Shown one piece after another: positions 45,748 through 47,346 of a DNA stretch of 64,000 nt. Under the pieces are notes generated by a model that was given only the letters and a program-made list of their open reading frames with translations, ran no database searches and was not told where the DNA came from. Positions within the stretch are counted from its first letter, which is position 1. Each line of letters begins with the position of its first letter. Position numbers and translations under genes: made by a program. This DNA comes from Polyporus tsugae (Eukaryota > Basidiomycota > Agaricomycetes > Polyporales > Polyporaceae): positions 2,728,001 through 2,792,000 of the forward strand of contig JAHRBS010000004.1 of assembly GCA_024305745.1 (NCBI GenBank), given 5' to 3'.

Positions 45748-47346
45748 ATGGCTGTGGAACGTGTAAAGCAAGTCGCCGCACATCTCGCCTTTGGGTCAGT
45801 AAAGGGCCGTGACGCCCTGTTGCGCAAGTCCCCGGACGATGTGGTCATTACCCTGGCCATTCGGTCGCCTTTGTGCAAGGCCAAGAAGGGTGGACTAAAG
45901 GACACGAAGTGCGTGTACTTTTGCTTGTGTCCGGGCGAACAAAGCTCAACGCTGTTTCCTAGGAGCGACGAGATCCTCTACGAGATATTCAAGGTAGAGT
46001 TCCACGAGGCGACCCCCCTCAATGACGCAGAGCTCATGTTTACCCCGAACCATAGCAAACCATCGCACGGTCTTCAATCGACCCTGCACTAATCCAGGAT
46101 GTGACCGTCGGCACGGTCCTCACAGCAGGTGCACCCTACCAGGCCCGTAATGCTGCCCTCGCTGCGGGCATTCCGGACACAACCCCCGTCCAGACCATCA
46201 ACCGTTGGTGTTCTTCCGGATTGATGGCCGTCACCGACATCTCGAACAAGATTAAGGCCGGGCAGATCGATATTGGGCTCGCGGTCGGGATGGAGAGCAT
46301 GACTGACAAGTGCGTCTGCTGTTTGGCGTCAAAGCCGGTCTGGCCCTGAACACCTTCCTTCCCGCAGCCCTGACCGTGGAGGGCCTCCCATGAGCGACGT
46401 CGTGAAGGCAAGTCAGCTCGCGCGTGACGCTGCGATGCCGATGGGCTGGACGTCCGAAAATGTGGCTGAAGATTTCAACGTTTCCCGGGAGGACATGGAC
46501 GAGCTCGCGGCGCTGTCCTTCCAGCGCGCCGAGAAGGCACAGAAGGAAGGTGTCTTTGCGTCAGAGATCGTGCCGTTCACGGCGTACGTCAAAGACCCGG
46601 GAACTGGCGAGCGCACTACCAAGATCCTCACGAAGGACGACGGGATCCGTTACGGCACCACGAAGGAGGGCCTGTTGAAGATCAAGGGTGCTTTCCCTCA
46701 ATGGGGCAAGGGGTACACAACTGGCGGGAATGCCAGTCAGATCACTGACGGTGCTGCCGCGGTCCTTCTTATGACCAGGAGGAAGGCAGAGCAGCTGGGG
46801 CTGAAGATCCTCGCCAAGCACGTCACCACGTCCGTCACCGGTTTGGCACCCCGCATCATGGGCATTGGCCCGTCGATCGCCATCCCCATGGTCCTCGAAG
46901 CGACCGGTCTTGCAAAAGATGATGTCGATCTGTTTGAGGCGAGTTACTTTGAGTTCGTCCTGCACGTTACACTTGACTGAACGTCGGAACCAGATCAACG
47001 AAGCGTTTGCGTCAATGTATGTTTACTGTGTAAGGAAGTTGGGCCTAGACATCAACAAGGTCAACGTCCATGGCGGCGCAATTGCACTTGGCCACCCGCT
47101 AGATAAGTTCCTACCGTCCCACCACGCGGCGTCATGCTGACAACCGGCGGGATCCCTATACGCTGCACCGGTGCCCGGCAGATTGCCACCGGCCTCAACG
47201 CGCTTTCAAGGCGGAACGGCAAGGTCAGTGCATCTCCATACAAGGATCACATCGTTCCGTCATATTGACTGATTCTCAAGATTCTCGTAACGTCCATGTG
47301 TATTGGCACTGGCATGGGTGCTGCCGCGGTGTTTGTCGCCGAGTGA
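45748..47346 (+). CDS. 3-ketoacyl-CoA thiolase, peroxisomal
   Basis: Last step of fatty-acid beta-oxidation: cleavage of 3-ketoacyl-CoA to acetyl-CoA and a shortened acyl-CoA. Residues 5-13, RVKQVAAHL, fit the PTS2 peroxisomal signal (R/K)(L/V/I)x5(H/Q)(L/A). Seven exons (45748-45908, 45963-45993, 46056-46309, 46368-46938, 46994-47102, 47162-47223, 47281-47346) give 417 residues, the usual length. The nucleophile Cys lies in [12 protein letters not shown], the active-site His in [11 protein letters not shown], and the second Cys in [15 protein letters not shown] at the end. The intron after exon 4 has a GC donor. The intron after exon 5 starts AT and ends AC. Both must be removed to restore the family sequence, so the gene is either intact with rare splice sites or damaged twice in a surprisingly matched way. 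I favour intact. Confidence 0.87.
46939..46993 (+). other. GC-AG intron in the thiolase gene
   Basis: The exon ends DLFE and the donor reads GAG|GCGAGT; the acceptor is GGAACCAG. Removal joins DLFE to INEAFASM, the canonical thiolase FEINEAFA. Read-through meets an in-frame stop. No GT donor gives the frame. Confidence 0.8.
47103..47161 (+). other. putative AT-AC intron in the thiolase gene
   Basis: The intron begins ATAAGTTCC and ends CCCTATAC, 59 nt, with a branch-like TGCTGAC about 25 nt before the 3' end. Its removal joins ALGHPL and [10 protein letters not shown] through a rebuilt Gly codon, exactly the conserved thiolase HPLGCTGARQ. The donor matches the ordinary GTAAGT pattern except for the first base, so it looks like a U2-type rather than a U12-type (ATATCC) AT-AC intron. 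Confidence 0.75.

What the first reader, a model, noticed from the sequence alone, without database searches (positions are those of the whole stretch)
47103..47161. Putative U2-type AT-AC intron in a fungal 3-ketoacyl-CoA thiolase gene
The sequence between ALGHPL and CTGARQ begins ATAAGT and ends TATAC. Only this removal rebuilds the conserved HPLGCTGARQ; I found no GT-AG pair that does. The donor is the standard GTAAGT with its first G changed to A, and the last base changes from G to C. This is the paired first/last-base change known to be tolerated together in U2-type AT-AC introns. A TGCTGAC branch site sits at a normal distance. Such introns are very rare, and this one is inside a core metabolic gene next to the active-site His.
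Basis: partly seen in the sequence, partly recalled or inferred. Interest (0 to 1): 0.9.

Follow-up and report, generated by a model that had tools for sequence, protein, structure and literature searches.

The report
Ancient AT-AC intron in mushroom thiolase
A 59-base stretch in a fat-breakdown enzyme gene of a Ganoderma-like mushroom is very likely an intron with the rare AT-AC ends; faulty public gene models from 21 named fungi in eight orders break at the same place and fit the same odd start, so it has likely persisted since the ancestor of that whole class of fungi.

Summary
Observation confirmed. Bases 47103-47161 (ATAAGT...TATAC, 59 nt, phase 1) lie in a seven-exon, 417-aa 3-ketoacyl-CoA thiolase gene (45748-47346), 99% identical to a Ganoderma leucocontextum protein of the same length. 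Of the excisions scanned, exactly one rebuilds [17 protein letters not shown]: this one. A U2-type AT-AC intron is the best reading: the donor is GTAAGT with G1 to A, TGCTGAC lies 21 nt from the end, and U2 and U6 but no minor-spliceosome snRNA were found.

The new result is age. Among 224 homologs, 22 proteins go wrong right after HPL, and all 22 read Asp there, which fits G|AT (or G|AC) and excludes G|GT. The next residue fits ATGAGT, ATAAGT or ATATGT in 18 of 19 cases judged readable. Five models with Arg before C/ATGAR exclude a last intron base G and fit C. 21 of the 22 are named, from eight Agaricomycete orders. So the AT-AC ends look inherited while inner donor bases changed. AT-AC introns as such are known in Ganoderma (13 counted, at least one Sanger-confirmed; PMC11590231). 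No RNA read and no ortholog DNA were seen here.

The parts
45748..47346 (+). 3-ketoacyl-CoA thiolase gene (peroxisomal type), 7 exons, 417 aa when the six introns are removed
   Evidence: 99% identity to a Ganoderma leucocontextum protein of the same length; solved thiolases; TIGR01930, 392.9 bits, cut-off 240.55
47103..47161 (+). AT-AC intron 5, 59 nt, phase 1 (splits Gly376 codon)
   Evidence: only scanned excision that rebuilds the conserved active-site stretch
47103..47108 (+). 5' splice site ATAAGT, i.e. GTAAGT with first base A
   Evidence: 5 of 6 to GTAAGT; 4 of 8 to the U12 site ATATCCTT
47135..47141 (+). branch-site-like TGCTGAC, A at 47140, 21 nt before the last intron base
47160..47161 (+). 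3' splice site AC
   Evidence: five orthologous models with Arg before C/ATGAR fit a last base C
47093..47095 (+). codon of His373 (GHPLG), 8 to 10 nt before the intron
   Evidence: active-site role recalled
46939..46993 (+). intron 4, GC-AG (GCGAGT...CCAG), 55 nt
   Evidence: paralog L010 has a GT-AG intron at the same codon boundary
45909..45962 (+). intron 1, GT-AG, 54 nt
45994..46055 (+). intron 2, GT-AG, 62 nt
46310..46367 (+). intron 3, GT-AG, 58 nt
47224..47280 (+). intron 6, GT-AG, 57 nt

Best explanation
Bases 47103-47161 are very likely an AT-AC intron of a Ganoderma-like thiolase gene that the ordinary major (U2) spliceosome is predicted to remove, and that was likely inherited from the common ancestor of the Agaricomycetes. 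How it would work: U1 pairs with the last exon base and intron bases 2-6 (G|aUAAGU), missing only intron base 1 there; U2 pairs with UGCUGAC; at the second step the first and last bases meet as an A-C pair in place of the usual G-G pair. Shown here: boundaries that alone rebuild the protein, the match to the U2 donor, and the Asp-reading break in orthologs. Inferred: splicing by the U2 machinery, and descent from one ancestral event. Why it would persist (inferred, weakest step): a return to GT-AG needs both ends to change, and one-step forms may splice less well.
For: Only one scanned excision rebuilds the conserved stretch. Full model open, 417 aa, 99% identical to a G. leucocontextum protein of that length with HPLGCTGARQ contiguous. 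224 homologs from three searches: 195 intact, 22 aberrant right after HPL, 7 lacking HPL; first residue after HPL in the aberrant ones is Asp in 22 of 22; second residue over all 22: Glu 10, Lys 6, Met 3, Asn, Thr, Arg 1 each. Asp = GAT/GAC, so intron base 1 is A; a G|GT intron would give Gly. Setting aside three whose second residue may come from the model's own junction, 18 of 19 are Glu, Lys or Met (fit ATGAGT, ATAAGT, ATATGT; Lys also fits ATAAAT) and the third residue fits a T-codon in 13 of 14 (readable residues picked by hand). None of the 19 fits the U12 site ATATCC. Five models have Arg before C/ATGAR, which excludes a last intron base G. 21 of 199 proteins of 370 aa or more are broken near this junction against 2, 4, 2, 0 and 8 at introns 1, 2, 3, 4 and 6. 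All 29 non-intact proteins match the window gene better than its paralogs. A GT-AG fallback here (47107-47210) gives HPLDKRNGK, the same junction peptide as the annotated Trametes maxima protein. A second AT-AC intron sits in POL3 of the same genome. G. lingzhi: 13 AT-AC introns, at least one Sanger-confirmed, in a zf-C4pol gene (PMC11590231).
Against: No RNA evidence for this locus. No DNA of relatives could be read; their donors are inferred from translated models, so intron base 2 could be T or C, and the acceptor is inferred in only five. 195 of 224 models are intact, which says nothing about whether they have AT-AC, GT-AG or no intron there; the 224 are the top rows of capped lists. Parallel origin in eight orders is not excluded without DNA and a tree. 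The minor-snRNA searches had no positive control. Against the 'frozen pair' idea: in G. lingzhi the one-step forms GT-AC (49) and AT-AG (21) are commoner than AT-AC (13) (PMC11590231, Table 1). Two paralogs have a GT-AG intron 6 nt downstream, unexplained.
Confidence: 0.93

Rival explanations
1. A U12-type AT-AC intron, removed by a minor spliceosome still present in this fungus.
For: AT-AC ends; U12-type introns were first described by them (PMC3584512, passages).
Against: Donor ATAAGTTC matches ATATCCTT at 4 of 8; best match to TTCCTTAAC in the last 40 nt is 6 of 9, within the range of the gene's other introns (5 to 7). U11, U12, U4atac, U6atac: no match; U6 six, U2 four. No convincing minor introns in Basidiomycota (PMC10639083; PMC2846911). 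No readable ortholog donor fits ATATCC (0 of 19).
Confidence: 0.02
2. Sequencing error or decaying pseudogene: the true ends are GT and AG, or the copy no longer needs splicing.
For: Two of six introns are not GT-AG; paralogs have their intron 6 nt downstream, so a damaged acceptor could be imagined.
Against: 417-aa frame intact, Cys116, His373 and Cys403 present; 99% identity to a G. leucocontextum protein; 22 other proteins read Asp at the same codon, which an error in this assembly cannot cause.
Confidence: 0.03
3. Real AT-AC intron, but the orders acquired it independently, or their Asp reading reflects other noncanonical ends (for example AC at the 5' end).
Against: Same codon, same phase, 22 of 22 Asp, 18 of 19 second residues fitting three standard donors with base 1 changed; five acceptors exclude G. 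A double change repeated in eight orders at one site is less likely than one event.
Confidence: 0.15
4. Regulated retention: the intron is poorly spliced on purpose and the retained form (stop after [15 protein letters not shown]) tunes thiolase level.
For: P0124, an unnamed 381-aa protein on a 1322-nt contig, is open over the sites of the upstream introns and ends HPLDKCSYI, as if only this intron were kept.
Against: One unnamed record whose RNA origin is not known; no expression data.
Confidence: 0.08

Closest known systems
AT-AC introns of Ganoderma lingzhi (PMC11590231)
   Same: Same genus by protein match; AT-AC ends; 13 counted among about 92,000 introns (0.014%), at least one Sanger-confirmed together with a GC-AG in a zf-C4pol gene (abstract, outline and passages seen; supplement not read).
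   Different: The main text has no mention of thiolase (term count 0); whether this intron is one of the 13 is unknown. No conservation beyond the species in the passages seen.
AT-AC introns of C. elegans (PMC3033335, passages) and vertebrate sodium-channel U2-type AT-AC introns (recalled)
   Same: AT-AC ends, probably handled by U2-type spliceosomes in C. elegans, which seems to lack minor snRNAs (59 found, at least 42 judged real).
   Different: Different genes and kingdom; here evidence for persistence over a fungal class.
U12-type AT-AC introns
   Same: Terminal dinucleotides.
   Different: Donor and branch site do not fit; no minor snRNA match.
Survey of noncanonical splice sites (PMC7072748)
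   Same: Fungal AT-AC introns reported as rare (passages); conservation of noncanonical sites suggested from Armillaria gallica trees (section 3.5 read).
   Different: No gene-level case of a class-wide AT-AC intron in what I saw.

Membership tests
U2-type AT-AC intron | begins AT and ends AC at the exact exon junction | tested here: met
   unique excision 47103-47161 among those scanned
U2-type AT-AC intron | donor follows the U2 consensus apart from base 1 | tested here: met
   ATAAGT, 5 of 6 to GTAAGT
U2-type AT-AC intron | ordinary branch site at ordinary distance | tested here: met
   TGCTGAC, 21 nt to the end; of the gene's other introns only intron 6 has a CTRAY match, so this motif is not required in this gene
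U2-type AT-AC intron | removed in vivo by the major spliceosome | not testable with these tools
   no RNA reads or splicing assay; inferred from U2/U6 presence and literature
U12-type intron | 5' site (A/G)TATCCTT | tested here: not met
   4 of 8 matches
U12-type intron | branch site TTCCTTAAC close to the end (optimum 11-13 nt by PMC3584512) | tested here: not met
   best 6 of 9 in last 40 nt, within the range of the other introns (5 to 7)
U12-type intron | minor snRNAs present in genome | tested here: inconclusive
   no match for U11, U12, U4atac, U6atac; method rang for U2 and U6 but there was no positive control for the minor ones
peroxisomal 3-ketoacyl-CoA thiolase | full-length thiolase match and catalytic Cys, His, Cys | tested here: met
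   TIGR01930 392.9 bits; 1afw aligned through GHPLGCTGARQ without gap; Cys116, His373, Cys403 (roles recalled)
peroxisomal 3-ketoacyl-CoA thiolase | PTS2 import signal at N-terminus | tested here: inconclusive
   RVKQVAAHL near the start fits the recalled PTS2 pattern; no tool test

The most novel reading that the evidence does not exclude
One AT-AC intron, fixed before the Agaricomycetes split, has kept its A...C end pair in a lineage without a minor spliceosome while its inner donor bases switched among AAGT, GAGT and ATGT. The end pair may act as an evolutionary lock, since a return to GT-AG needs two changes. Its source may even be an old U12-type AT-AC intron that moved to the major spliceosome when Dikarya lost the minor one. 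It silently breaks the annotation of a core enzyme across mushrooms.
Probability: 0.5. Interest if true: 0.68.

Novelty: new member of a known kind. Interest (0 to 1): 0.58.

Why it matters
AT-AC introns handled by the major spliceosome are usually treated as scattered oddities. A case shared by eight orders would show that the A-C end pair can be kept very long without the minor spliceosome, and would give many natural variants for testing when AT-AC and GT-AG interconvert. Practically, it explains why public models of a core beta-oxidation enzyme are broken around the active-site His (28 of the 224 proteins collected here, plus one cut off earlier in the chain), and it gives a simple flag (Asp after HPL) for finding others.

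Tried and rejected
GT-AG and GC-AG alternatives: 24 open-frame excisions, each losing part of the conserved stretch. U12-type: rejected on donor and branch site, with the snRNA searches as weak support. Pseudogene or sequencing error: rejected by the intact frame and the 22 Asp-reading proteins. Ortholog DNA: an IUPAC pattern for the junction found nothing in viral contigs and 10 records in prokaryote contigs, all with bacterial titles, taken as chance and not read further. Permissive AT-AC candidates in the POL3 and REV3 regions: 45 and 64 rows, which I judge nearly all chance; so AT...AC with open flanks alone is no evidence, and the POL3 case was kept only because it restores KVR-G-IFERG against solved DNA polymerase delta. 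In one search a stricter motif scored 150 of 186 as intact; seven of its 36 misses were motif artefacts, so one search replaced it. In one search the scan for the residue before xTGxR took only each protein's first match and gave 29 rows: 23 lie in an unrelated stretch (DPATGAR-like), five carry Arg at the junction, one (Artomyces P0045) carries Tyr and was not used. In paralog L010 an AT-AC reading is also in frame but gives GAAG where GT-AG gives GMTG; GT-AG was preferred. tRNA scan and Rfam scan (gathering scores) of the window found nothing. Literature searches; the three papers that hold thiolase, AT-AC and intron do not look to be on this subject by title (listing only).

Full report
What is there. 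The window lies in a 43.24 Mb genome of 18 contigs. The gene at 45748-47346 has seven exons and codes for 417 aa. Its best match is a 3-ketoacyl-CoA thiolase of Ganoderma leucocontextum, 99% identical over the full length and of the same length, so the source is a Ganoderma or very near it (inferred). The family match is clear (TIGR01930; solved 3-ketoacyl-CoA thiolases such as 1afw and 2c7y). Cys116, His373 and Cys403 are present (positions; catalytic roles recalled).

The intron. Introns 1, 2, 3 and 6 are GT-AG, intron 4 is GC-AG, intron 5 (47103-47161) is AT-AC. A scan of excisions of 20-140 nt found exactly one that rebuilds [17 protein letters not shown]. 24 GT/GC-AG excisions keep the frame open but lose part of that stretch. 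The donor is 5 of 6 to GTAAGT; the branch-like TGCTGAC has its A 21 nt from the end. The cut cannot slide: the base before the intron is G and its last base is C.

U2 or U12. The donor is 4 of 8 to ATATCCTT and the best U12 branch match is 6 of 9, within the range of the other introns of the gene (5 to 7). U6 gave six matches and U2 four; U11, U12, U4atac and U6atac gave none, though no genome that has them was at hand as a control. A survey of over 3000 genomes finds no convincing minor introns in Basidiomycota (PMC10639083, passages), and an earlier one, testing one basidiomycete, agrees (PMC2846911, abstract and passages; it lists two other AT-AC introns there). The exchange of the terminal G-G pair for A-C is described for yeast and human introns (PMC8283771, passage).

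Age. I collected 224 homologs in three searches, each listing the best 120 of about 8,000 scored candidates. 195 are intact at HPLGxTGxR, 22 go wrong right after HPL, 7 lack HPL. All 22 have Asp after HPL. If a gene finder cannot use the AT donor and reads on, G|AT gives Asp; G|GT would give Gly. Over all 22 the second residue is Glu 10, Lys 6, Met 3, Asn 1, Thr 1, Arg 1. Leaving out P0007, P0074 and P0184, where it may come from the model's own junction, it is Glu 10, Lys 5, Met 3, Thr 1; these fit ATGAGT, ATAAGT (or ATAAAT), ATATGT and, for Exidia, ATACGC, of nine donors tried. The third residue fits a T-codon in 13 of 14, the exception being Exidia. Five models (Trametopsis P0080, Sanghuangporus weigelae P0086, Tetrapyrgos P0102, Exidia P0135, Vararia P0168) have Arg before C/ATGAR. 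That codon is the last intron base plus the rest of the Gly codon; Arg excludes G and fits C (or A, if the Gly codon ends in A or G).

Spread. 21 of the 22 are named: Polyporales 7 (Daedaleopsis nitida, Epithele typhae, Trametes maxima, T. sanguinea, Abortiporus biennis, Phlebiopsis gigantea, Trametopsis cervina), Cantharellales 4 (two Ceratobasidium, two Tulasnella, known to genus), Russulales 3 (Artomyces, Hericium, Auriscalpium), Hymenochaetales 2 (Sanghuangporus), Agaricales 2 (Coprinopsis, Tetrapyrgos), and one each of Gloeophyllales (Neolentinus), Auriculariales (Exidia) and Hysterangiales (Hysterangium). Orders were looked up by species or genus. The 22nd, P0124, is unnamed. All 29 non-intact proteins match the window gene better than its paralogs, as do 219 of all 224. 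Dacrymycetes and the yeast-like outgroups in the lists are intact, which does not tell what intron they have.

Control. Among 199 homologs of 370 aa or more, 21 have an indel of 3 or more, or a truncation, within 6 aa of this junction, against 2, 4, 2, 0 and 8 at introns 1, 2, 3, 4 and 6. Relatives need not have introns at those sites, so this is a rough control; and the variable N-terminus (residues 17-24, no intron here) has more indels, 27, than any stretch at the junction. One GT-AG fallback in the window, 47107-47210, yields HPLDKRNGK, the same junction peptide as in the annotated Trametes maxima protein.

A second case. In POL3 (DNA polymerase delta) of the same genome an AT-AC intron of 64 nt (C17:1925772-1925709, minus strand; G|ATATGTCC...TTTCTTCAC|GC, CTGAC with A 25 nt from the end) restores KVR-G-IFERG, aligned without gap at that point to solved DNA polymerase delta. 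PMC11590231 reports a Sanger-confirmed AT-AC intron in a G. lingzhi gene with the zf-C4pol domain of DNA polymerase delta (passages). That it is this same intron is likely but was not seen. The same paper counts 13 AT-AC introns beside 89,855 GT-AG and 1,706 GC-AG; a 2026 paper gives 0.0235% AT-AC in Coriolopsis trogii (PMC13395996, passages).

What stays open. No RNA read and no ortholog DNA were seen. The idea that the end pair is frozen has a point against it: in G. lingzhi the one-step forms GT-AC (49) and AT-AG (21) are commoner than AT-AC (13). The two closest paralogs of the same genome (L008, L010) have a GT-AG intron 6 nt further on, in the Thr codon. Whether this is sliding or two separate gains I cannot tell. 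PMC2846911 describes a U12 AT-AC intron that became U2-type by a splice-site shift of three amino acids in worms (passage), a possible model.

Verdict. AT-AC introns in Ganoderma are known, so this is a new member of a known kind; the evidence that it spans a whole class, hidden by broken annotations, is what makes it worth a specialist's time.

Noticed in passing
46939-46993: A second non-GT-AG intron (GC-AG, GCGAGT) in the same gene; the paralog L010 has GT-AG at the same boundary.
   Followed up: partly
G000:C17:1925772-1925709 (minus), locus L019: AT-AC intron of 64 nt in POL3, G|ATATGT...TTCAC|GC, likely the counterpart of the Sanger-confirmed AT-AC intron of a G. lingzhi zf-C4pol gene.
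   Followed up: partly
L008 and L010 (paralogous thiolases): Both have a phase-1 GT-AG intron in the Thr codon, 6 nt downstream of the AT-AC site. In L010 the same intron also reads in frame as AT-AC shifted by 4 nt at both ends (ATGA|GTGAGT, GACAC|GCAG).
   Followed up: partly
P0124 (unnamed source, 381 aa on a 1322-nt contig): Frame open over the upstream intron sites but ends HPLDKCSYI, as if only the AT-AC intron were retained; could be an unspliced transcript.
   Followed up: no
45760-45786: N-terminal RVKQVAAHL fits the recalled PTS2 peroxisomal import pattern.
   Followed up: no
public records P0004, P0006, P0007, P0011, P0021, P0100, P0130, P0182 and others: Annotated thiolases in public databases are broken around the active-site His, as expected if the AT-AC intron was not modelled.
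   Followed up: yes
47847-48392: Start of the next open frame on the + strand: what looks like a single-pass membrane N-terminus (MASNYTYNATYNHSN...KWIKIGIPVGILVIAGAVVGIVLGL); not identified.
   Followed up: no
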